A stretch of DNA of 20,117 bases from a virus, in IMG/VR virus record IMGVR_UViG_3300032235_000462, positions 1-20,117 of that record, one strand, 5' to 3'. Below, piece by piece: positions 9,948 through 20,080 of the stretch. The translations under genes were made by a program, and so were the position numbers. Within the stretch, counting starts at the first letter, position 1, and every line of letters starts with the position of its first letter. The notes below the pieces were generated by a model. That model made no database searches. It saw only the letters and a program-made list of their open reading frames with translations, and was not told the origin of the DNA.

Positions 9948-10421
9948 ATGCACTCCATACGAGACGGCGATAGAACACTTCAGTTCAATGGCAAACTTTT
10001 AGCTAGATCTACTTCAGAGAGACATCAAGCACTGCGCTGGGTGGAGTTCGAACTCTATAAAACCGAAAGCGGATCTTATATTCTTTCTAGAGTTGGTGTC
10101 TCGATTATGTTCCACGGTGCGGCTTGCCCTATGGTTAAAAAGTATAAGCTGACTGAAGCTCCCACTGAAGGAATAAATAGTAGGGCTGTACCTTGCCCAG
10201 AGTGTTCCCCGGATCTGAGCCTAGACCTAGTTTTCCCTGAAAAATACAGGTACTGGGCAATGGTAACTTCGGACCCAGCTGCTATTCTCGATTCTCTGTA
10301 TAAGTATGACGAAGACACTGATAACTACTACTTGACATCTGTAGCTCAAAGACTGCTTTCGGAAGCATCCAAAGTTGACTCTGAAATTGCTAATGTGTAT
10401 ACTGTGGAGATAATCCCGTAA
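9948..10421 (+). CDS. Unknown protein with a possible zinc site
   Basis: I do not recognise this 157-residue protein with certainty. The ATG at 9948 is preceded by AAGGGG at good spacing. The N-terminal half looks beta-rich, with RWVEFELYKTESGSYILSRVG. It holds a candidate metal site made of His56, Cys60, Cys83 and Cys86 (HGAAC, then CPEC). The C-terminal half is helical and acidic (AILDSLYKYDEDTDNYYLTSVAQRLL in two adjoining stretches). No catalytic motif is apparent. It lies between tail and replication genes, 19 bases before the polymerase start. It could be a small nucleic-acid-binding or regulatory protein, but function is open. Confidence 0.75.
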   Translation: MHSIRDGDRTLQFNGKLLARSTSERHQALRWVEFELYKTESGSYILSRVGVSIMFHGAACPMVKKYKLTEAPTEGINSRAVPCPECSPDLSLDLVFPEKYRYWAMVTSDPAAILDSLYKYDEDTDNYYLTSVAQRLLSEASKVDSEIANVYTVEIIP

Positions 10422-10440: not shown

Positions 10441-12261
10441 ATGACAACTGGCCTAGATGGAGTCCAGCTCCACTTGGTCGATAGTGTAGACAAAGCTGCA
10501 GAGTTTATGTCTTGGCTAGGGGAGCGTCGCCCCTTAAACGCCATTGCTATCGATACCGAAACCGGTGAACTTCCCGGAAACCCAAGAAAAGATGCTCTAT
10601 CTCCATGGCACGGACGTCTACGTTTGGTCCAGGTAGGCGATGGCATGACCGGCTGGTCTATCCCTTGGGAGAACTGGAAGGGCGTCTTCTATGATGCAAT
10701 GAATAAATTTGATGGCCCACTTGTCTGCCACAATATTGCCTTCGAGGCAAAGTGGTTTGAGATCCAATCGGAATGGTCTATCCCTTGGCACCGTGCGCAT
10801 GACACCATGATTATGGCAAAAATTATTGACCCTCTTGGCACTGGTGCATTGAAAAAGCTAACAGAGCAATATGTAGACCCAACTGCGGCAGCTCTTCAGT
10901 CGATTCTAGATTACGGGCTATCTGACAATGGCTGGACTTGGGGAACGGTTCCAATTAACTATGAACCTTACTGGTCTTATGGTGCACTAGACACTGTTCT
11001 TACCATGCGGCTCTTTGAGATGTTCTGGCAGAAAACCGCTCCTGGTCAGCCCTACAGCATTCCGTATGAGTTGGAAATGAATACTCGTCGCATAACCACC
11101 AAAATGGAGCTCAATGGTGCTCGTCTTGACTTGGACTACTCCAAGAAGAAGTATCAGGAGTTGATTGACTATACCGATCAAGTGGCCGAGTGGGCTAAAA
11201 CTAATTACGGCCTATCAATTGGAAGTAACCAACAGCTAGTCCGACAGTTTGAGAATCTTGGCTTTGAGATAACAGAGCTTACCGATAAGGGGCAGAAGTC
11301 TGCCTCTAAGGACCAGCTAAAGTTGATCTCTCGTGACGGCAACTCCGAGTCTAAGCAGTTGGCGGATACTACTCTTAAATACAGGCAGGCCCTAAAGTTG
11401 GCAAATACCTATTTTGCTAACTTCATTAATGACAACACGGATGGATTCGTACACCCATCTATCAACACAATGGGTGCTCGTACTGGACGTATGTCTATCC
11501 AGAACCCTGCACTTCAGACTCTTCCTAAGGGTGACGATACTGTACGCCGTGCGTTCTTGCCGAAGGACGACGAGCATGTCATCGTAACCTCTGACCTCGA
11601 CCAGGTTGAGTTCCGCATGTTTGCATCTCTATCCCAGGATCCCAACCTCATCCAGCTATTCTTGCGCTCTGACGCAACTGGGTCTGACCCATTTACCGAA
11701 ATCGGTCGCGAAGTCTATCAGGACCCGTCAATGCAGAAATCTGATAAGCGTCGTGGTCTCATTAAGGGCGTAGTTTATGGACGTCTGTATGGAGCAGGTG
11801 TCTCTAAGCAGGCGCTTACAGCTGGCGTGCCAGAGGAGCAAATGCGTGCCGTGTCTAATGCATTCGACGAGAGATATCCTGGTATGCAGCGCTTCCAGAA
11901 GTATGTGGAGCAGACTGGATCAGCTCGACTCGAAGCTGAGGGTCAGGGGTATGTGCACACTTGGACCGGTAGACGAATTCCGTGCGATGAAGATCGCGTA
12001 TACACTCTTGTTAACTACCTAATTCAAGGTGGAGCGGCAGAAGTTTTCAAGTCAAATCTGGTTAAATTGGACCAAGCTGATCTAACTGACTTGTTAATTG
12101 TCCCCGTGCATGATGAAATTGTGCTAAATGCTCCGCGTAAAGACGCGGAAGAAATCAAGCAATTGGTTAGGAAGTGTATGACTACTACCGAAAACTGGTC
12201 AGTACCTTTGACTGCTGACGTAGACGGTCCACTAGAGAACTGGGGTGCTAAGTATGTCTAG
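10441..12261 (+). CDS. polA: Family A DNA polymerase with 3'-5' exonuclease
   Basis: This 606-residue protein is the probable replicative polymerase. The N-terminal proofreading domain shows Exo I (IDTE, Asp38 and Glu40), Exo II (HNIAFE, Asn98 and Glu102) and Exo III (YGALD, Tyr180 and Asp184). The polymerase domain has the GARTGRMSIQNPALQTLP segment, motif A (SDLDQVEFR with catalytic Asp385 and Glu390), motif B (RRGLIKGVVYGRLYG with Arg438, Lys442 and Tyr446) and motif C (HDE 557-559). There is no 5'-3' exonuclease domain, and the length fits actinophage and T7-type replicative enzymes. Tyr446 sits where Taq has Phe667 and T7 polymerase has Tyr526. The ATG follows AGAAAG. The resolvase start lies inside its last codons. 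Confidence 0.97.
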   Translation: MTTGLDGVQLHLVDSVDKAAEFMSWLGERRPLNAIAIDTETGELPGNPRKDALSPWHGRLRLVQVGDGMTGWSIPWENWKGVFYDAMNKFDGPLVCHNIAFEAKWFEIQSEWSIPWHRAHDTMIMAKIIDPLGTGALKKLTEQYVDPTAAALQSILDYGLSDNGWTWGTVPINYEPYWSYGALDTVLTMRLFEMFWQKTAPGQPYSIPYELEMNTRRITTKMELNGARLDLDYSKKKYQELIDYTDQVAEWAKTNYGLSIGSNQQLVRQFENLGFEITELTDKGQKSASKDQLKLISRDGNSESKQLADTTLKYRQALKLANTYFANFINDNTDGFVHPSINTMGARTGRMSIQNPALQTLPKGDDTVRRAFLPKDDEHVIVTSDLDQVEFRMFASLSQDPNLIQLFLRSDATGSDPFTEIGREVYQDPSMQKSDKRRGLIKGVVYGRLYGAGVSKQALTAGVPEEQMRAVSNAFDERYPGMQRFQKYVEQTGSARLEAEGQGYVHTWTGRRIPCDEDRVYTLVNYLIQGGAAEVFKSNLVKLDQADLTDLLIVPVHDEIVLNAPRKDAEEIKQLVRKCMTTTENWSVPLTADVDGPLENWGAKYV

Positions 12262-12724
12262 TTATATCTTGGCCCTTGACCCGGGCAAGCTCACTGGAGT
12301 TGCACTGCTTCGCAGAGAAGCAGGAGTAGTGGACCCAATCCTTGAGGGATCTTGGGAGCTTCAACAGGATGAAATAGCTCCTATTGTTAGGGACATTATC
12401 TGGAACCCCATAATTAAAAACGATATTGATATCGTATGTGAGAGATTTATCATTAACGCTCAGACCGTTAGAAACTCTCAAGCGCCCTACTCGCTGGAGG
12501 TAATTGGAATTCTAAAGCAGTGTCTATTTGATAATGGCAAAACTGCTGAAGAAATATACTTCCAGGCACCAGCAAATGCGATGGCGATGTTTACCAATGA
12601 AAAGCTCAGAAAGCTGGGCTACTGGCACCGAGGCGGGGCTGGCCACGCCCTGGATGCAATCCGACACGCCCTACTCCGCGCTGTAAATAGTGGCTGGAAA
12701 CCAGTAGGATTACTAAAAGATTAA
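12254..12724 (+). CDS. RuvC-like Holliday junction resolvase
   Basis: This 156-residue RNase H-fold nuclease probably resolves branched DNA during replication or before packaging. The acidic residues expected of RuvC are present: Asp9 in ILALDPGKLTG, Glu63 in IVCERF and Asp134 in HALDAIRHAL, with His131 beside the last. Size is close to bacterial RuvC. I chose ATG 12254, which overlaps the polymerase stop by 8 bases. GGGG at 12242-12245 is a modest ribosome binding site 8 bases upstream. A GTG at 12245 would use those same bases as coding. Overlap with the polymerase gene suggests coupled translation. Confidence 0.88.
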   Translation: MSSYILALDPGKLTGVALLRREAGVVDPILEGSWELQQDEIAPIVRDIIWNPIIKNDIDIVCERFIINAQTVRNSQAPYSLEVIGILKQCLFDNGKTAEEIYFQAPANAMAMFTNEKLRKLGYWHRGGAGHALDAIRHALLRAVNSGWKPVGLLKD

Positions 12725-12726
12725 AA

Positions 12727-12771
12727 ATATTATCAAAAAACACTTGCACTGGTAGTTTTTTCTGATAATAT
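12727..12771. repeat. Large imperfect inverted repeat in the helicase promoter region
   Basis: The left arm 12727-12741 (ATATTATCAAAAAAC) pairs with the right arm 12755-12771 (GTTTTTTCTGATAATAT), with only a two-base bulge (CT at 12762-12763). The loop is 13 bases. The 77-base gap is the largest intergenic space here besides the window ends. Because the right arm carries the -10 element, the dyad could be an operator. It could also fold in mRNA from the resolvase gene as a weak terminator. The stem is AT-rich. Confidence 0.7.
12744..12771 (+). promoter_or_regulatory. Probable sigma70-type promoter with extended -10 for the helicase operon
   Basis: TTGCAC (12744-12749) and TAATAT (12766-12771) are separated by 16 bases. 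TGA directly before the -10 gives the TGn extended -10 form. Transcription would start near 12778, leaving a leader of about 24 bases with a strong ribosome binding site. The promoter would drive helicase, nuclease, ATPase and SSB-like genes up to the terminator at 16896-16926. It overlaps the inverted repeat at 12727-12771, which suggests control by a dimeric repressor or activator. Confidence 0.65.
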
Positions 12772-12790
12772 AGATACAGCAACAACAGAT

Positions 12791-12796
12791 TGGAGG
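12791..12796 (+). promoter_or_regulatory. Strong ribosome binding site that sets the helicase start
   Basis: TGGAGG precedes the ATG at 12802 by 5 bases. It rules out a TTG at 12790 in the same frame, which would place the start codon upstream of this site. Confidence 0.75.
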
Positions 12797-12801
12797 CTGT
12801 A

Positions 12802-14631
12802 ATGGCCGTTTTTGTAGAATTAGATGGCGAGCACATCATAATTAACGCCGAATGGCGTTTAAAGGAAGTTTGTCGGGCTCTGCCTGGCTCCCGATGGGAC
12901 GCTGAGGCAAGTGTCTGGAGGATTCCAGTATCTTGGACTGGCTGCTTATCACTTAGGTCCACCTTTGGCGCACAGCTGGAGATTGGCCCTAAGCTGGCTG
13001 AATGGGCTAAAAACGAAAAAGCAAATAGAATCGATCCATCCAATGCTCTAAGGGAAATAGAGGCAATAGATGAGGGTGATCAGGACCTATTCCCGCACCA
13101 GCGTGCTGGCGTTGAGTTCCTCTCTAAGGCCCGTAGAGCGCTCTTAGCAGACGAGCCTGGTCTCGGGAAGACTGCCCAGGCTATTAGGTCTCTAAAGCGA
13201 CTACATGACCGCGGAGAGCAGGTTTTTCCAGCTCTTATCGTGTGCCCAAACACCCTAAAAACTAACTGGGAACGAGAATTTGACCGCTGGTGGCCAGGTA
13301 TCGATGTTCAGGTTGTTAAGGGGTCAGCTACCCAGCGTCGCAAGGCATTCGATCACGAGGCCCAGGTCTACGTGATCAACTGGGAATCGCTTAGGACTCA
13401 CTCAAAGCTTCTATCTTATGGGTCAATTGCATTAGCACGTTGCACTGACTGTGGAGGCCATGACTCTAAGATTACTGCCTCAAGATGCGAAGTACATCAG
13501 CGTGAATTGAATGTCATCGACTTTAAGGCTGTAGTTGCAGATGAAATTCACCGCTCTAAGGACCCTAAATCTAAGCAGACTCGTGCGTTTTGGGCTGCTT
13601 CAGGTAATGCAGACATTAGATTTGCCCTAACTGGAACTCCAATTGCTAATACTGTGGTTGACCTGTGGCCAATTCTTCACTGGCTAGACGCTAAAGAGTG
13701 GCCAAGTAAAACTAAATGGCTAGACCGCTATGTCAACACAATGATGAACGCATTTGGTGGTCTAATGATTCTGGGACTCAAGCCAGCTATGGAATCCGAG
13801 TTCTTTGCCGGAATCCACCCTCGCATGCGTCGCATGTTGAAGCAGAAAGTGCTTCCTTGGCTACCAGAGGTAATTAACGACCGACGAGATGTTGAGATGG
13901 GTGCGAAGCAGGCTAAGGCTTACAAGCAGATGCTAGAAAACATGATTGCTGAACTTAGTACTACTCCGGAAGAGCGATTCCAGGAAGCATTTGAACAAGG
14001 TGAGACTGACATTGTCGTCGCACCTAATCCTCTAACTCAGACCATGCGTCTTCTTCAGTTTGCTAGCTCATACGGAACCATGGAGCTAGTGGACGGTCAA
14101 GAAAAAATGATTTTGTCAGACCCTTCTTGTAAGGTTGATGCTCTGATGGATGATATTGAAAATGGAGACTTTGGTGACGACTCTGTTGCGGTTTGTGCAG
14201 TGTCTCGTCAGCTCATTGAGCTGCTAAGTGCTCGCCTAACTAAAGAAAAGATTGCTCATGGACTTATCACTGGTGCTCAGAGCGGTGACGAGCGCCAAAG
14301 GGCTATCGATGACTTCCAGGCTGGTCGCACAAAGTGGATCCTTTTCACGGCTCAAGCGGGTGGTGTTGGTGTTACCTTGACAGCAGCACGTCGACTTGTT
14401 ATGCTTCAAAGACCATGGTCTCTTGTTGACTACAAGCAGGCCCTGGACCGAGTTCACAGAATTGGTTCTGAGATTCACGATTCGATTCTTATTACTGATT
14501 ATGTGACCGAGGGAACCATCGAAGAGCGGGTAATTGAGGCGCTAGACGGGAAGTCTGAAAACTTCCAGCAAGTTGTGCGCGACAAGGACCAGCTAATTAA
14601 GATGCTAAACGACAACAAGAAGGAGCTCTAA
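12802..14631 (+). CDS. SNF2-type DEAD/DEAH-box helicase with Cys/His cluster
   Basis: This 609-residue superfamily 2 ATPase of the SNF2/RapA kind probably remodels or unwinds DNA during replication and recombination. An N-terminal domain of about 75 residues (SRWDAEASVWRIP) precedes the motor. Motif Q is LFPHQRAGVEFL, motif I DEPGLGKT (Lys123), motif II DEIH (247-250) and motif III ALTGTP. The second RecA-like lobe has GGVGVTLTAARRLVMLQRPW and motif VI QALDRVHRIG (546-555). Cys214, Cys217, Cys229 and His232 form a CxxC-x11-CxxH cluster between motifs Ia and II and could bind zinc. DEIH replaces the common DEAH. The stop overlaps the next ATG by one base. Confidence 0.93.
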   Translation: MAVFVELDGEHIIINAEWRLKEVCRALPGSRWDAEASVWRIPVSWTGCLSLRSTFGAQLEIGPKLAEWAKNEKANRIDPSNALREIEAIDEGDQDLFPHQRAGVEFLSKARRALLADEPGLGKTAQAIRSLKRLHDRGEQVFPALIVCPNTLKTNWEREFDRWWPGIDVQVVKGSATQRRKAFDHEAQVYVINWESLRTHSKLLSYGSIALARCTDCGGHDSKITASRCEVHQRELNVIDFKAVVADEIHRSKDPKSKQTRAFWAASGNADIRFALTGTPIANTVVDLWPILHWLDAKEWPSKTKWLDRYVNTMMNAFGGLMILGLKPAMESEFFAGIHPRMRRMLKQKVLPWLPEVINDRRDVEMGAKQAKAYKQMLENMIAELSTTPEERFQEAFEQGETDIVVAPNPLTQTMRLLQFASSYGTMELVDGQEKMILSDPSCKVDALMDDIENGDFGDDSVAVCAVSRQLIELLSARLTKEKIAHGLITGAQSGDERQRAIDDFQAGRTKWILFTAQAGGVGVTLTAARRLVMLQRPWSLVDYKQALDRVHRIGSEIHDSILITDYVTEGTIEERVIEALDGKSENFQQVVRDKDQLIKMLNDNKKEL

Positions 14632-15563
14632 TGGCAGAGCCAATTAGAATCTCTAACTCAGAGATTCAAACATTTAAGGATTGCCGACGTCGCTGGTGGT
14701 TTACGTACTACCGCAGGCTGCGTCCAAAGGTAGAAGAGTTTACAGGTGCACTTGCTCTAGGGTCTCGTATCCACGAGGCGTTGGATAGACACTATTCGAC
14801 TGGTCAGGATCTGCTAGAAGCGCACGCTGAGCTTGTCCGCGAAGACCTAAAAAAGATGAACGACTCATTTAGGGATACAACTAACTTAGAGTCAGAGGCC
14901 GAGCTAGGTCGAGTCATGCTGGAGGGCTATCTAGAGTGGATCGAACTTAACGGAATTGACGCTGAGCTTGAGATGATCTCTACAGAAGAGATTATTGAGC
15001 GACCTATGCTTAATGGGAGAGTCACGCTACAAGGAAAAATTGATATGCGCGTTCGCCGTAAAATCGATGGTGCTCGTATGTTCCGTGACTTCAAGACCGT
15101 AGGCGGGTCTTTCGCTGACTTTGGTTCAATCTCTCACATGAATGAGCAGGTTCTTACGTACATGATTCTTGAGGAAGCTCAGAATCGAGACGGGGAGCGC
15201 TCAGATGGTGCTATCTTCACGATGCTTCGTAAGGTTAAGCGCGGTGCTTACGCCAAGCCACCGTTCTACGACCAGATCGAGGTACGTCACAATAAGTTTG
15301 CTCTCCGCTCTTTCTACGAGAGATTGGAAGGCACCCTAGAGGATATGATGCGCGTGCGCGATGCTCTAGATGCCGGGGAGAGCCACTTCCGCCACGCATA
15401 CCCGAAACCAAGCCGGGACTGCAAGTGGAAGTGCCAATTCTTCGCTATTTGCCCGCTGGTTGACGATGGTTCGGCAGCTGAAGCAGCAATTAGTGATGCG
15501 TTCGTGGTCGCCGACCCGTACGGATACTATGGAATAAATGATGAACAGAAGGGAAGTGAGTAA
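14631..15563 (+). CDS. Cas4/RecB-like PD-(D/E)XK nuclease with Fe-S cysteines
   Basis: This 310-residue protein of the PDDEXK_1 / RecB-exonuclease group probably trims DNA ends for recombination. The catalytic set is visible: His48 (GSRIHEAL), Asp138 (QGKIDMR), Asp153 and Lys155 (FRDFKT) and Gln173 with Tyr177 (EQVLTYM). Cys18 near the N-terminus (FKDCRRRWWFTYY) and Cys264, Cys268 and Cys274 near the C-terminus (CKWKCQFFAIC) match the one-plus-three arrangement that ligates a 4Fe-4S cluster in Cas4 and AddB. No helicase domain is attached, but the adjacent SNF2 gene could supply one. TAATG overlaps on both sides imply translational coupling. No CRISPR array is present, so a Cas4 role in adaptation is not supported. 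Confidence 0.92.
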   Translation: MAEPIRISNSEIQTFKDCRRRWWFTYYRRLRPKVEEFTGALALGSRIHEALDRHYSTGQDLLEAHAELVREDLKKMNDSFRDTTNLESEAELGRVMLEGYLEWIELNGIDAELEMISTEEIIERPMLNGRVTLQGKIDMRVRRKIDGARMFRDFKTVGGSFADFGSISHMNEQVLTYMILEEAQNRDGERSDGAIFTMLRKVKRGAYAKPPFYDQIEVRHNKFALRSFYERLEGTLEDMMRVRDALDAGESHFRHAYPKPSRDCKWKCQFFAICPLVDDGSAAEAAISDAFVVADPYGYYGINDEQKGSE

Positions 15564-16333
15564 TGAGTAACGCAGTTGATCGCAGTTTAACAATTATGGT
15601 TTATGGCGAATCTAAAGTTGGTAAGTCCAGCTTTGCTGTAACAGCTCCATACCCACGTCTAATGCTCGATGTTGAGGGAGGCCACCGCTTCCTACCAATT
15701 AACATTAAGTATTGGGACCCCATGACTGAAGAACCACCGCTAGCTGATGGAACTTGGGACACTGCTGTAGTCAAGGTAAATGACTATGACGTTGTTATGA
15801 AGGCCTTCCAGTGGCTTCAGTCTGGAAAACACCAGTTCAAGTCCTTGATCATCGACTCGATTTCCGAGTTGCAGGTCAAGTGCATGGACAACATCGCAGG
15901 TACTGAGCAAATGAAAATGCAACAGTGGGGCGAATTGCTTCGCCACATGGGAGCACTTCTTCGCGACCTCCGTGACCTTACGATGCACCCAACTCAGCCT
16001 CTTGAGGCTGTAGTGCTGACAGCTATGGCTCGTAAGGGTCAGGATGGTGTGTACCGTCCGTACCTACAGGGTCAGCTAGCGATTCAGGCCCCGTATTTCT
16101 ACGACATTCTGGGAGCAATCACTGTTGAAACAGTGCCTAACCCAGACCCAATGCAGTCACCGTACAAGGTGAGACGCATGTATGTAGAGCGAACTCCGGA
16201 ATATGAAGCCGGAGAGCGCGTACAGGGACGTCTAGGAAAAATTGTCGAGCAGCAGGACCTCGGGGTCGAGCGCATGCTAGACATCGTCTTCGGTGAAACG
16301 AAGGCTCAACCAACAACAAAGAAAACTAACTAA
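15563..16333 (+). CDS. RecA-fold ATPase, Sak4-like recombinase
   Basis: This 256-residue P-loop protein resembles the AAA_24/Sak4 group of phage single-domain recombinases related to Rad51/RecA core. Walker A is GESKVGKS (15-22) and Walker B is SLIIDS, with Asp98 as the likely acidic residue. DVEGGHRFLP (36-45) follows a strand as in this family. There is no RecA-type N-terminal oligomerisation domain or C-terminal domain. Its neighbours, a nuclease and an SSB-like protein, are the usual partners of Sak4 proteins in single-strand annealing or strand exchange. It overlaps the nuclease stop by one base. An alternative is a general phage AAA ATPase loader. Confidence 0.87.
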   Translation: MSNAVDRSLTIMVYGESKVGKSSFAVTAPYPRLMLDVEGGHRFLPINIKYWDPMTEEPPLADGTWDTAVVKVNDYDVVMKAFQWLQSGKHQFKSLIIDSISELQVKCMDNIAGTEQMKMQQWGELLRHMGALLRDLRDLTMHPTQPLEAVVLTAMARKGQDGVYRPYLQGQLAIQAPYFYDILGAITVETVPNPDPMQSPYKVRRMYVERTPEYEAGERVQGRLGKIVEQQDLGVERMLDIVFGETKAQPTTKKTN

Positions 16334-16341
16334 GGAAGATA

Positions 16342-16884
16342 ATGACTACTGTCAATTTCGCAGAGCTAGTTAAGCAGGCAGGAACTGCCGCTTCATCTAG
16401 CAACAGCTATGCACCACTGCCTGATGGCGATTACGACCTAAAGGTAATCGAAGCTCAGGCTACAACTACATCTACTGGTAAGTTGATGTTTAAGATCACC
16501 AACGAGGTTCAGGGTGGCGCACACGACAAGCGCCGCGTCTGGGACCAGCTTGTGGTAACTCAGGACAACCCTAAGGCGATGAACATGTTCTTCATGAAGG
16601 CATCTGCAATGGGTCTACCTACTACCTACTTCGAGCAGAACCCTTCGCCAGCTCAAATCGAGCAGGCTCTATTGGGTCGTAGCTTCCGAGGAACTCTTGG
16701 TACCCGTACCTATAACGGAAACCAGAGCAACGAGATCAAGCGTTACTACCCAGCTAGCGGTGCAAGCGTTCCTGCTGCACCTGCTGCTGCTCCTGTAGCT
16801 GCTGCACCTGCACCAGCTCCAGCTCCAGCACCTGCACCAGCTCCAGCTTCACCAGTTGCTGGCGCAGAGGATGCTCCATTCTAG
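16342..16884 (+). CDS. SSB-like single-stranded DNA-binding protein (DUF669-like)
   Basis: This 180-residue protein probably coats single-stranded DNA and recruits partners. Residues about 27-137 form a beta-rich domain (PDGDYDLKVIEAQ, GKLMFKITNEV, RVWDQLVVT, then SFRGTLGTRTYNG) like the DUF669 proteins found beside Sak4 recombinases. Residues 143-172 form a Pro-Ala linker. The last residues, AEDAPF, copy the acidic hydrophobic tip of bacterial SSB (DDIPF type), which docks replication and repair proteins. GGAAG lies just before the ATG. A strong terminator follows 12 bases after the stop. The DNA-binding role is inferred from family resemblance, context and the tail. Confidence 0.82.
   Translation: MTTVNFAELVKQAGTAASSSNSYAPLPDGDYDLKVIEAQATTTSTGKLMFKITNEVQGGAHDKRRVWDQLVVTQDNPKAMNMFFMKASAMGLPTTYFEQNPSPAQIEQALLGRSFRGTLGTRTYNGNQSNEIKRYYPASGASVPAAPAAAPVAAAPAPAPAPAPAPAPASPVAGAEDAPF
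16768..16857 (+). repeat. Low-complexity Pro-Ala linker repeat
   Basis: CCTGCT- and CCAGCT-type hexamers encode 30 residues that are almost all Pro and Ala (143-172), between the SSB-like domain and its acidic tip. The direct repeats could change in number by replication slippage, so linker length may vary among relatives. Confidence 0.85.
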
Positions 16885-16895
16885 TAAACTGATTG

Positions 16896-16926
16896 AGCGG
16901 GGTGGGCAACCACCCCGCTTTTTCTT
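16896..16926 (+). terminator. Strong intrinsic terminator with GCAA tetraloop
   Basis: AGCGGGGTGG (16896-16905) pairs perfectly with CCACCCCGCT (16910-16919), giving a 10 bp stem closed by the GNRA-type loop GCAA. TTTTCTT follows. It lies 12 bases after the SSB-like stop and ends the replication/recombination transcript. It is the only strong terminator I see in the window. Confidence 0.95.
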
Positions 16927-16937
16927 AGAAGGTTAGT

Positions 16938-17948
16938 ATGAAAATTCTTATGACCGGCATGGCGTCCGCCCACTGCTCAACCAAGGGAAATACAACATTT
17001 TTTAGCGGACTGTATTTAGCATTCTCGGAGTTTGCCGACGTCACGCTGTGTGAACCAAAACTAACCTGGACAAGAGCTGAATTAGAAGAATATGACCTAG
17101 TTGTCATCGGGCTAACTCCGCCTACATCACTTGCTGCGAATAAAATCTATGGCGCATTGCATGCATTGAATCTCTTATATGAGTCACCTAAGCTCAGGGT
17201 TGTGGTGGATGGTCCGCAGGTTTGGCAGTTCAAGAATAGTTTTGCATCTTACAGAAAAAACCCTTTGCAAATTTTTTCCTCGATGAACTCTGCTAGAAAG
17301 AATTTCAACGACGCAAAAACTAAGAATTTAAATGATTTTAAGGCTCTAGCAGATAAGATGAATTCTTTGCTATGGCCAAAAACATATGTCCCAATTCTGC
17401 CCTGGGGCTCCACTCAAAAAGCAGCTGAAGCCCTGGGATTTATCCCTGCTGACAGGGTAATTGGCATTCAAATAGACTCTTTCTTATTGGATAAGCAGTC
17501 CGCTGTACACACCGTAAAGAATCAGGTCTGGGCCGTGGACAACATTAAAAGCTCATGGTGGTCTACGCTATCTAAGACTCTAAGAATTCCTGGCATATCA
17601 GTTGCTGCTACTCGGAAGCCTAGAGATTTTGAAGTAGAATTAAATATGTCTAAAGCTATAGGGCTGGTTGTCACTCCTCAAGACCGGAAAGTCGGAACTT
17701 GGTGGACTTATAGATATATTCAAGCCCTTAACTCAAACACCCCCGTAGTGACTTATTGGCAAGATACTGCAGCTTTTTCCGACGCCTGGGCAAAGCTTGC
17801 ATATCAGGTAGAGGATATGGACCCTTATGATCGACAAGAACTAGCTAGGGCGCAATTCAAGGATTATGTAGATAACATTCCGCAAACTAACCAGGTGGTA
17901 CACACTCTAAGGACAGACCTGGTAGAATCGACTCAGGAGAGAATATAA
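16938..17948 (+). CDS. Putative GT-B-type glycosyltransferase
   Basis: This 336-residue protein looks like a two-Rossmann-domain glycosyltransferase, but no single motif settles it. The N-terminus MKILMTGMAS (1-10) with FFSGLYLAF has the strand-loop-helix of a GT-B acceptor domain. YDLVVIGLTPPTSLAANKIY (52-71) and VVVDGPQVW (88-96) continue alternating strands and helices. The C-terminal part VGTWWTYRYIQAL...TPVVTYW (from about residue 252) resembles the donor-sugar region of GT-B enzymes. A basic helical middle (about 97-130) could contact nucleic acid. Possible substrates are phage DNA, virion proteins or the host envelope. AGAAGG precedes the ATG. No promoter is visible after the terminator, so it may rely on read-through. 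Confidence 0.5.
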   Translation: MKILMTGMASAHCSTKGNTTFFSGLYLAFSEFADVTLCEPKLTWTRAELEEYDLVVIGLTPPTSLAANKIYGALHALNLLYESPKLRVVVDGPQVWQFKNSFASYRKNPLQIFSSMNSARKNFNDAKTKNLNDFKALADKMNSLLWPKTYVPILPWGSTQKAAEALGFIPADRVIGIQIDSFLLDKQSAVHTVKNQVWAVDNIKSSWWSTLSKTLRIPGISVAATRKPRDFEVELNMSKAIGLVVTPQDRKVGTWWTYRYIQALNSNTPVVTYWQDTAAFSDAWAKLAYQVEDMDPYDRQELARAQFKDYVDNIPQTNQVVHTLRTDLVESTQERI

Positions 17949-18386
17949 ATGCCAGAAATAAACCGTGAATGGATCGTAGAGCAGCTACAAGCTGCAAAGA
18001 TTAAAGTCGGATCAGGGAAAGCCATAATGAAGCTCCTTGAGGCCTGGGAGACCGTACCCAATCTCAGCGAGGCTATGACGGAAGAAGTTCTTCGCGTATT
18101 TCCACTGGTTGCCAGGGGAGTAGTCCTTAAGGTGGAAGAAGACGAGAATGATTACGCATGGATTCCACTGCAGCCAGGACAAATTAGTGTAGGGGACGTG
18201 GTTCGAGTTAAGGCAGACGCTTTTGCCGACAAACTTGGGCCGCTTCATAACGGCCGCCGCGGGACGGTTGCTGCTGTTCGCTACGGCGATGTTATCTTCA
18301 ATGACACTGATGGAAAGAAGCCTGAACTTAAAGGCGTCCACTACTCCCCATACAAGCTGGAAAAGCGAGTAAGAAAGGCAAACTAG
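17949..18386 (+). CDS. Unknown protein with possible SH3/KOW-like C-terminal barrel
   Basis: This 145-residue protein starts at the base after the previous stop (TAAATG). Residues about 1-60 should be helical (NREWIVEQLQAAKI). Residues about 76-140 look like a small beta barrel: GDVVRVKADAF, then GRRGTVAAVRYGDVIF and a final YSPYKLEKRVRKAN. The VGDxVRV...G..GTV..V pattern is typical of SH3- or KOW-like domains that bind nucleic acid or protein. The basic tail fits nucleic-acid contact. I do not recognise the whole protein. Its direct junction to the upstream gene suggests a shared function. Confidence 0.72.
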   Translation: MPEINREWIVEQLQAAKIKVGSGKAIMKLLEAWETVPNLSEAMTEEVLRVFPLVARGVVLKVEEDENDYAWIPLQPGQISVGDVVRVKADAFADKLGPLHNGRRGTVAAVRYGDVIFNDTDGKKPELKGVHYSPYKLEKRVRKAN

Positions 18387-18640
18387 TGAGAACATCATTC
18401 GAACTTAAACTAGTTGCATCAACTCTAAGCGAGGCAAAGGAAGTTGCTAGTAAAGAGATTTGTAAATTTCTAGAGATCTCGGAAGCCGAGCTTGAGAACA
18501 TAGTTTCGGTGGAGCTAAAAGTCACATATCCGAAAGCGGAGACTGTAGTTGAAATTGAACAGGGAGTATCGGCTGGAGTATTTCAAGTTACTGCATATGG
18601 ATCAGTTAAGCAGAGTGTAGTTAGACCGTTTGGCGCATAA
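18386..18640 (+). CDS. Small protein of unknown function (GTG start)
   Basis: This 84-residue protein starts with GTG at 18386, overlapping the upstream TAG by one base (TAGTG), with AAAGG upstream. Predicted structure is strand, helix (LSEAKEVASKEICKFL), strand, strand, as in small dimerising alpha-beta folds. Residues FELKLVAS and VSVELKVTYP would form paired strands. No catalytic or metal-binding residues stand out. Overlap coupling makes it a genuine gene despite its size. Function is unknown. Confidence 0.7.
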   Translation: MRTSFELKLVASTLSEAKEVASKEICKFLEISEAELENIVSVELKVTYPKAETVVEIEQGVSAGVFQVTAYGSVKQSVVRPFGA

Positions 18641-18652
18641 GTCTTACTGAAT

Positions 18653-19552
18653 ATGTCAATAATAGGTAACGACGGAGAGACCCTTCACCCGCATCTTAGA
18701 GGGTTAGAGTGGATAGATTCTCTTGGGCAAAATGTTTTACTAAACTTGTTTACTAGTAATTTTATAGTTACTAAAGATACGTATATCCCTAGAGGTCAAG
18801 ACTTTACTAAACAGTATCCAATAATTTTTGGTGGGTGCTCTGAAACTCATGGTAGCTATCTATCTGACAACGACAATAACTATTCCGGGAGAGACATCTG
18901 GGGATTTTTACTTGCTAAGTACCTAAATAAGCCTGCTGTAAATTTGGGATCCGGCGGAAAGTCTGCCCAGGACATAGTTAGGGTCATCTTAAACTACATC
19001 TCACTAGAAAGTAAACCAGAATACATATTCTGCCTTTTTCCTGATTTAAATAGGTTAAATATGCCAAATGATCCAAATATATTGATAGACAAGTTTTTCG
19101 ATAGAGATGGTGACATATATAATAATTTATCTACATCAATCCCTGACCCTAAAATTATCCCGAACTATACAAAAAAGCCACACCTCAAAGAGGATGTTAT
19201 ACCTAGAATTGTCCCAGTTTGGTCAAATCTACAGAGCATCTTGCTTCTAGAAAAGCTCAGCTCTTTAGCCGGTATTAAGTTAAAGTACTCTACGTGGAGC
19301 GAGCAAACACATTCGATTATTACCGGGATAACTGAATTTGAGAGGGCTTTAGGTAAGCCTAGTTCATATCCCAACTACGTAAGCACTGATCCAGTTACCT
19401 GGCTTACAGATAAACAAGAAAAGTGTGACGGCAACCACATTGTAGATATCGACACTGGCCATAAATACTTCCACATCGGGTCAGACGCCCTACACATGGG
19501 TGCGCATAGGCATGCCCATATTGCCGACGAGCTTATAAAAAATTTAACGTAA
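18653..19552 (+). CDS. SGNH/GDSL hydrolase-like protein
   Basis: This 299-residue protein has the layout of an SGNH hydrolase, a group that removes or transfers ester-linked groups on sugars or lipids. Block I is FGGCSETHG (Ser63 as nucleophile), block II NLGSGGKSAQD (Gly99 and Gly101), a block III-like FPDLNR (Asn133) and block V DALH (Asp278 and His281) near the C-terminus. No signal peptide is visible, so it should act in the cytoplasm or on the virion. The gene is clearly more AT-rich than its neighbours (16 G+C in 60 bases at 19021-19080) and uses many ATA codons. No convincing ribosome binding site precedes the ATG. Possible roles include deacylating surface glycans or acting with the upstream glycosyltransferase-like protein. 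Confidence 0.68.
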   Translation: MSIIGNDGETLHPHLRGLEWIDSLGQNVLLNLFTSNFIVTKDTYIPRGQDFTKQYPIIFGGCSETHGSYLSDNDNNYSGRDIWGFLLAKYLNKPAVNLGSGGKSAQDIVRVILNYISLESKPEYIFCLFPDLNRLNMPNDPNILIDKFFDRDGDIYNNLSTSIPDPKIIPNYTKKPHLKEDVIPRIVPVWSNLQSILLLEKLSSLAGIKLKYSTWSEQTHSIITGITEFERALGKPSSYPNYVSTDPVTWLTDKQEKCDGNHIVDIDTGHKYFHIGSDALHMGAHRHAHIADELIKNLT

Positions 19553-19556
19553 TAAC

Positions 19557-19585
19557 TTGACAAATACTTTTCTATTTGCTATTTT
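19557..19585 (+). promoter_or_regulatory. Near-consensus sigma70 promoter for a leaderless mRNA
   Basis: TTGACA (19557-19562), a 17-base spacer and TATTTT (19580-19585) form a strong promoter. The next ATG is at 19592, about 7 bases after the -10, so transcription should begin at or next to the A of the start codon. There is no ribosome binding site between them. Leaderless mRNAs are common in Actinobacteria. Confidence 0.8.
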
Positions 19586-19591
19586 TAGCTT

Positions 19592-20080
19592 ATGCAAACA
19601 TTTGTCCCGCTGTTTGGCTCAGCAGATACAGCCAAAGTACTAGACCGTGCCCGCTTAAATAAGCAAGCTTTAGAGGGCTGGCAAATTCTAATGAATCTTG
19701 TAGAACTTGATCCTCAAGGGAACCATCGAACCGCAAAGGGGTGGCGTAATCATCCAGCAGTCAAAATGTGGCGAGGCCACGAAGGAGCTTTGGTCTCGTA
19801 TATCCTTAAGATGGTGCTCGAATGGGAAAAGCGTGGATACAAATCCACAATCGGTGAAAAGACCCTTCAGACATATATTCAAGCTGTAAAGCTAGGTCGA
19901 ATTACTAGAGAAAGCCATCGTCTTCCAGATTGGATGCGTGACAGTCAGCTTTTTGAGCAAATAGCAGCTAGCCATAGAATGGCCCTGCTTACCAAAGACT
20001 ACGAGTGGTACTCACAGTTTGGTTGGGCTGAAGATACTGGCTCTAGACCTGATTCGTACGAGTACGTATGGCCTGTTTAG
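19592..20080 (+). CDS. Pyrimidine dimer DNA glycosylase (DenV/Pyr_excise)-like
   Basis: This 162-residue protein resembles T4 endonuclease V and the actinobacterial MSMEG_6728-type relatives, which cut DNA at UV-induced pyrimidine dimers. MQTFVPLFGS, then VLDRARLNKQALEGWQIL, gives the conserved N-terminal helix with Arg21, Gln25 and Glu28, where T4 uses Glu23. HPAVKMWRGHEGAL and the helix ending EWEKRGY resemble the central T4 helix ending CLKRGF. KDYEWYSQFGW resembles the T4 C-terminal WYKYYG. T4 uses the amino group of Thr2 as nucleophile, while here Gln2 precedes Thr3, so the nucleophile is uncertain. Its own strong promoter suggests expression apart from the upstream cassette. Confidence 0.78.
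   Translation: MQTFVPLFGSADTAKVLDRARLNKQALEGWQILMNLVELDPQGNHRTAKGWRNHPAVKMWRGHEGALVSYILKMVLEWEKRGYKSTIGEKTLQTYIQAVKLGRITRESHRLPDWMRDSQLFEQIAASHRMALLTKDYEWYSQFGWAEDTGSRPDSYEYVWPV

What the first reader, a model, noticed from the sequence alone, without database searches (positions are those of the whole stretch)
16938..19552. Accessory cassette pairing a glycosyltransferase-like and an SGNH-like protein
After a strong terminator come a GT-B-like protein, a possible SH3/KOW-like protein and an 84-residue unknown joined by direct or overlapping junctions, then an SGNH hydrolase-like gene. Sugar transfer plus ester hydrolysis suggests modification of a glycan on DNA, virion or host envelope. A basic segment in the GT-like protein and the basic possible SH3/KOW domain would fit DNA as a substrate. 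This is the best candidate for an undescribed system here.
Basis: inference. Interest (0 to 1): 0.65.

Follow-up and report, generated by a model that had tools for sequence, protein, structure and literature searches.

The report
Core sugar-transferase in actinophage replication operon
The gene is a sugar-transferring enzyme folded like the one phage T4 uses to put glucose on its DNA, kept in the DNA-replication operon of every related lake actinophage examined; the neighbouring ester-hydrolase gene is only an occasional guest, and most of these phages, apparently including this one, show no known enzyme to make the DNA base that such a transferase would decorate.

Summary
The 336-aa protein models as GT-B (pLDDT 91), with T4 DNA beta-glucosyltransferase as nearest solved structure (Z 17.9); the 299-aa protein models as an SGNH hydrolase. 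"Cassette pairing GT and SGNH" is wrong. The GT lies between SSB and KOW genes in 155/155 related loci (102 distinct) and is among 28 genes shared by six 107-135 kb relatives. The SGNH gene is a rare insert upstream of the PDG promoter, at a slot usually empty or holding other cargo. A subset of relatives carries an inserted cytosine-hydroxymethylation module (kinase, dCMP-hydroxymethylase-like ThyA homologue with the Asn-to-Asp change, dCMP deaminase, MazG), always with an extra GT. Phages like the window have the core GT without it. Best reading: an inverting, UDP-sugar-dependent glycosyltransferase, probably acting on phage DNA, acceptor unidentified. Fold, conservation and absence of the hmC module are shown by computation; DNA as substrate is inference (about 50%). 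The novel possibility is a widespread DNA glycosylation pathway whose acceptor-making enzyme is unknown.

The parts
16938..17948 (+). core GT: GT-B glycosyltransferase of the T4 beta-glucosyltransferase fold type, 336 aa; probable catalytic base Asp91
   Evidence: AF2 pLDDT 91.4; T4 BGT best match, Z 17.9, rmsd 3.9 A, 296 residues; Asp91 invariant in 111/111 distinct homologues; 155/155 loci between SSB and KOW
17949..18386 (+). KOW/SH3-like protein, 145 aa, conserved replication-operon gene
   Evidence: PF00467 E 0.014, below cut-off; homologues in Microbacterium phages without GT
18386..18640 (+). 84-aa conserved protein of unknown function
   Evidence: present between KOW and PDG in most close relatives; no family match
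18653..19552 (+). SGNH-fold hydrolase-like protein, 299 aa; accessory insert at a variable slot
   Evidence: Foldseek/VIA matches to SGNH/GDSL enzymes; conserved GCSxTxG block and terminal His motif; same slot in L081/L163, L092, L125; empty in L002-L007
16895..16920 (+). terminator-like hairpin between SSB and GT
   Evidence: equivalent hairpins in 13 relatives
19557..19585 (+). sigma-70-like promoter of the next gene (PDG); in relatives it directly follows the 84-aa gene, so the SGNH gene sits just upstream of it
   Evidence: TTGACA-17-TATTTT; TTGACA conserved upstream of PDG in L002-L007 and L030
19592..20080 (+). pyrimidine-dimer DNA glycosylase-like gene (PDG)
   Evidence: PF03013 E 2.8e-19
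16342..16884 (+). ssDNA-binding protein-like gene upstream of GT
   Evidence: DUF669 and phrog_378 'single strand DNA binding protein' E 5e-14
10441..16333 (+). replication/recombination operon: PolA, RuvC-like, helicase, PD-(D/E)XK exonuclease, Sak4/RecA-like
   Evidence: PHROG matches for helicase, exonuclease, Sak4; annotated orthologues in DSL-LC01 for PolA and RuvC

Best explanation
The GT is a phage-encoded inverting GT-B glycosyltransferase of the T4 beta-glucosyltransferase fold type that takes a sugar from a UDP-sugar and most likely transfers it to phage DNA during or after replication, protecting the genome from host nucleases. Asp91 would act as the catalytic base (position of BGT Asp100) and the C-terminal domain (Arg259) would bind the nucleotide. 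It is a core gene of a large group of lake actinophages. One sub-group has added cytosine hydroxymethylation and a second GT. In the group containing the window the acceptor on DNA must be something else, made by an enzyme not yet recognised. The KOW and 84-aa genes are operon neighbours; the SGNH gene is an occasional passenger without a required role. Shown by computation: fold, conservation, distribution, absence of the hmC module. Inferred: UDP-sugar donor, inverting chemistry, DNA as acceptor, protection.
For: T4 BGT is the best solved-structure match (Z 17.9 versus 16.2 for the next family; T4 AGT 14.6) and takes most of Foldseek's top ranks. Asp91 follows the same strand as BGT Asp100 and is invariant in 111 sequences. 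Gene between SSB and KOW in 155/155 loci, core in six large genomes. Profile homology (E 5.6e-33) to the GT1 family, whose members lie beside UDP-galactopyranose mutase in DSL-LC01 and Erwinia FBB1 and inside an RB69-like arabinosylation gene cluster in Morganella Rgz1. All seven relatives in which a dCMP-hydroxymethylase-like gene was found also carry GT1 or a GT25-like gene. GT is one of the fastest-diverging genes of the operon (51% identity where Sak4 is 96%), as expected under an arms race.
Against: No thymidylate-synthase-superfamily gene in eleven contigs of 96-154 kb of the single-GT kind, no UDP-galactopyranose mutase, one cytosine-5 methylase among them, no TET/JBP match above cut-off. 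Profile match to BGT itself is not significant (probability 3.9%). BGT's Glu272 is replaced by Gln262. Other close fold matches (SenB, MshA, BshA) act on small molecules. The extra GT, not the core GT, tracks the hmC module.
Confidence: 0.5

Rival explanations
1. The core GT glycosylates something other than DNA: a virion protein (such as hydroxylated collagen-like fibres), a host envelope glycan or a small molecule.
For: No base-hydroxylating enzyme is detectable in single-GT phages. Close relatives encode collagen-like fibres and 7-15 2OG-Fe(II) oxygenases of PF13640. Small-molecule GTs are near fold matches.
Against: Single-GT genomes G021, G024, G025, G027 and G029 keep the GT but have no PF13640 gene. 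The gene is in the replication operon, away from the fibre genes. Nearest structure and sister family are linked to DNA modification.
Confidence: 0.3
2. Ordinary T4-like system: the phage makes hmC and this GT glycosylates it; the hydroxymethylase gene lies outside the 20-kb fragment.
For: Fold like T4 BGT; some relatives do carry a dCMP-hydroxymethylase-like gene upstream of PolA.
Against: In the window PolA is preceded by the 157-aa gene and tail genes, as in single-GT relatives, with no module inserted. Eleven large single-GT contigs lack PF00303 altogether. Where the module exists there is always a further GT.
Confidence: 0.12
3. GT and SGNH hydrolase form one glycan-modifying system (sugar transfer plus ester hydrolysis).
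For: Adjacent, same strand; SGNH homologues recur at the same slot in L081/L163, L092 and L125.
Against: GT is present in all loci, SGNH in very few; the slot otherwise is empty or holds an HNH gene, a methyltransferase, a C5-methylase or a GT25-like gene. SGNH also occurs in L069, where no GT was recognised in the 6.6-kb stretch. It is more AT-rich than its surroundings.
Confidence: 0.06

Closest known systems
Phage T4 DNA beta-glucosyltransferase (BGT)
   Same: GT-B fold over 296 residues, Asp after the same N-domain strand, similar size, replication-gene context
   Different: No significant sequence or profile match; Glu272 replaced by Gln262; no hmC pathway in single-GT relatives
GT1 / phrog_14998 glycosyltransferases (DSL-LC01 93284-94330, Erwinia FBB1, Morganella Rgz1, Aeromonas T4-likes, Gordonia phages)
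   Same: Full-length profile homology (E 5.6e-33), same N-terminal MKILMTG and WW..R motifs; members neighbour sugar-nucleotide genes
   Different: Separate clade with 100/100 support; GT1 accompanies dCMP-hydroxymethylase-like genes, core GT does not need them
RB69-type cytosine arabinosylation module (PMC6024577, PMC13390438)
   Same: A GT1 relative in Rgz1 sits in the equivalent gene cluster between DNA polymerase and uvsX
   Different: RB69 ORF003c shows no profile match to core GT; no arabinose genes in the window
SGNH/GDSL hydrolases (CgnD, TesA, GDSL esterases)
   Same: Fold, GCSxTxG block, terminal His
   Different: No sequence-family match; block III Asn not conserved; long low-confidence insert

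Membership tests
GT-B glycosyltransferases | Two Rossmann-like domains, GT-B fold | tested here: met
   AF2 pLDDT 91.4, pTM 0.90; top 50 VIA matches all glycosyltransferases with Z 13 or more
T4 beta-glucosyltransferase family | Sequence or profile homology to BGT | tested here: inconclusive
   hhalign probability 3.9%, N-terminal 64 columns only; structure is closest
T4 beta-glucosyltransferase family | Catalytic Asp at BGT Asp100 position | tested here: met
   Asp91 after the equivalent strand, invariant 111/111; position judged from sequence and strand order, not from superposed coordinates
T4 beta-glucosyltransferase family | Glucosylation of hmC in DNA | not testable with these tools
   Needs biochemistry
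Phage hmC glycosylation system | Phage-encoded dCMP hydroxymethylase | tested here: not met
   None in the window or in eleven 96-154 kb single-GT contigs; present in a different subset only. Caveat: the window is a fragment
GT1 / phrog_14998 family | Homology | tested here: met
   hhalign probability 99.9%, E 5.6e-33
GT1 / phrog_14998 family | Falls within the GT1 clade | tested here: not met
   Core GT forms its own clade, 100/100
SGNH hydrolases | SGNH fold | tested here: met
   Z 12-13.8 to many SGNH structures; model confidence moderate
SGNH hydrolases | Ser in block I and His in block V | tested here: met
   GCSxT invariant; H(M/P/S)GxHxHxH motif in all members complete at that end
SGNH hydrolases | Gly of block II and Asn of block III | tested here: inconclusive
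   G102 invariant; the block III position varies N/D/Q
KOW/SH3-like DNA- or RNA-binding proteins | KOW motif above cut-off | tested here: inconclusive
   E 0.014, 15.7 bits versus cut-off 22.3
Conserved GT-SGNH cassette | The two genes occur together | tested here: not met
   GT 155/155, SGNH in the window and a handful of other contigs

The most novel reading that the evidence does not exclude
A widespread DNA hypermodification pathway in lake actinophages: the core GT glycosylates a base hydroxyl that is made not by a thymidylate-synthase-type hydroxymethylase or a TET enzyme but by an unrecognised enzyme, perhaps encoded by one of the core genes of unknown function (157-aa gene before PolA, KOW gene, 112-aa gene after PDG); cytosine hydroxymethylation was added in one branch together with a second GT.
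Probability: 0.28. Interest if true: 0.8.

Novelty: new variant of a known kind. Interest (0 to 1): 0.5.

Why it matters
These phages appear to infect abundant lake actinobacteria. A glycosyltransferase kept in every genome examined, next to the ssDNA-binding protein and with the fold of the T4 DNA glucosyltransferase, suggests that DNA or another replication-linked target is routinely glycosylated in them. Most of them lack the known routes to a hydroxylated base, so either a new route exists or the enzyme has another target; both outcomes are testable with cultivated actinophages.

Tried and rejected
Family searches of GT: no Pfam, PHROG, NCBIfam or PDB-sequence match. Full-length SGNH query found no relatives in viral contigs, phages or genomes; an 83-aa fragment and a wider neighbourhood survey did, so my first impression that SGNH was unique to the window was wrong. 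RB69 ORF003c as a relative: no profile match. TET/JBP: only sub-cut-off matches at the 2OG-oxygenase core. 2OG oxygenases as the general acceptor-maker: rejected, several single-GT genomes have none. A gene confined to single-GT genomes that could replace the hydroxymethylase: only one 95-aa gene, membrane-protein-like on reading its sequence. Basic charge as a DNA-binding mark: not conserved. The paper on biosynthesis of glycosylated 5-hydroxycytosine (PMC13326640) is not held. Rfam and tRNA scans of the window: nothing.

Full report
What is there. The four ORFs and the terminator are at the stated coordinates. Upstream lies a replication operon (PolA, RuvC-like, helicase, PD-(D/E)XK exonuclease, Sak4/RecA-like, SSB-like, and annotated orthologues in Actinomycetia phage DSL-LC01); downstream a pyrimidine-dimer glycosylase gene, PDG.

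Fold of the GT. No sequence library knows the protein. An AlphaFold2 model from 25 relatives has pLDDT 91.4. The best solved matches are all T4 DNA beta-glucosyltransferase (1QKJ Z 17.9, rmsd 3.9 A, 296 residues), ahead of SenB (16.2), MshA (15.5) and T4 AGT (14.6); Foldseek agrees. Asp91 follows the strand that carries the catalytic Asp100 in BGT and is invariant in 111 distinct homologues; Arg259 lies in a motif resembling BGT's R269xxE272, with Gln in place of Glu. These residue matches rest on sequence and strand order, since coordinates were not at hand. The functional roles of the BGT residues are from general knowledge.

Conservation. A survey built from three baits (GT, Sak4, PDG) gave 155 loci holding both SSB and KOW genes; GT lies between them in all 155, 102 of them distinct. 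In the loci that Sak4 (48 distinct) or PDG (53 distinct) brought in, without GT bias, the result is the same. Across six genomes of 107-135 kb GT is one of 28 shared genes. It diverges faster than almost every neighbour: where Sak4 is 96% identical, GT is 51%, SSB 64%, PolA 90%. More distant Microbacterium phages have the same operon with KOW directly after the SSB position and no GT there, so GT is core to this group only.

Relation to DNA-modification GTs. Some relatives carry a second homologous protein, GT1 (profile E 5.6e-33 to the core GT), of phrog_14998. GT1 relatives lie next to UDP-galactopyranose mutase in DSL-LC01 and Erwinia FBB1 and, in Morganella Rgz1, between an arabinose-5-phosphate isomerase and a nucleotide-sugar gene in the place of the RB69 arabinosylation cluster (RB69 chemistry from PMC6024577 and PMC13390438). 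Core GT and GT1 form separate clades (100/100).

The hydroxymethylcytosine module. In DSL-LC01 and contigs G008, G009, G011, G016, G039 and G044 a thymidylate-synthase homologue was found, upstream of PolA. In those aligned it carries Asp where thymidylate synthases have the pyrimidine-reading Asn, and Cys-Thr rather than Cys-His, as do T4 dCMP hydroxymethylase and the RB69 homologue. In G011 and G016 it is inserted with a P-loop kinase-like gene and a dCMP deaminase between the 156-aa gene and PolA, and MazG lies after GT. All seven also carry an extra GT, GT1 or a GT25-like gene. In contrast eleven single-GT contigs of 96-154 kb have no such gene, no UDP-galactopyranose mutase, one cytosine-5 methylase among them and no TET/JBP match over cut-off. 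The window has the single-GT arrangement. So the extra GT tracks hmC, and the core GT has an acceptor that does not depend on phage-made hmC. These contigs are not certified complete, so absence is strong but not final.

The SGNH gene. The model is weak overall (pLDDT 60) but its core matches SGNH enzymes almost exclusively. In close relatives the 84-aa gene is followed directly by the PDG promoter; in the window SGNH lies between the two. Homologues (about 32% identity) occupy the same slot in L081/L163, L092 and L125. The slot otherwise is empty or holds an HNH gene, a small methyltransferase, a GT25-like gene, or DUF6378 with a C5-methylase. SGNH genes are AT-rich relative to their surroundings. 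It is an accessory gene at a variable site, not a partner of the GT.

Verdict. Folds right, pairing wrong, DNA as substrate plausible at about even odds. The interesting remainder is a BGT-fold enzyme kept in every related phage examined, without a recognised acceptor-making enzyme in most of them. A 2023 report on cultivated Nanopelagicales phages already mentions glycosyltransferases and proposes genome protection (PMC10202952); whether those are this family could not be checked here.

Noticed in passing
G002 (IMGVR_UViG_3300036945_000699, L059-L061), G020 (L224-L229): Close relatives encode 7-15 2OG-Fe(II) oxygenases of PF13640 per genome beside collagen-like (GPT-repeat) fibre genes; other single-GT and the three hmC-type genomes tested have none. 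Suggests hydroxylated collagen-like virion fibres.
   Followed up: partly
DSL-LC01 OQ999401.1 85361-86221 (L050): Annotated 'thymidylate synthase' carries the Asn-to-Asp and Cys-Thr signature of dCMP hydroxymethylases; probably misannotated.
   Followed up: yes
G011, G016: between the 156-aa gene and PolA: A hydroxymethylcytosine-type module (kinase-like, hydroxymethylase-like, dCMP deaminase) inserted at one point of an otherwise constant operon.
   Followed up: yes
window 18640-19592: Variable cargo slot between the 84-aa gene and the PDG promoter, holding different DNA-related genes in different phages.
   Followed up: partly
window 9948-10421: 157-aa protein of unknown function upstream of PolA, core in all six large genomes.
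   Followed up: no
G002 reverse complement 14483-15133; G020 17051-18487: Sulfotransferase-like and carbamoyltransferase-like genes recognised by eye; not tested with a family library.
   Followed up: no
window 16895-16920: The hairpin between SSB and GT persists in relatives with changed sequence but kept stem; GT has almost no room for a promoter after it, so readthrough may set its level.
   Followed up: partly
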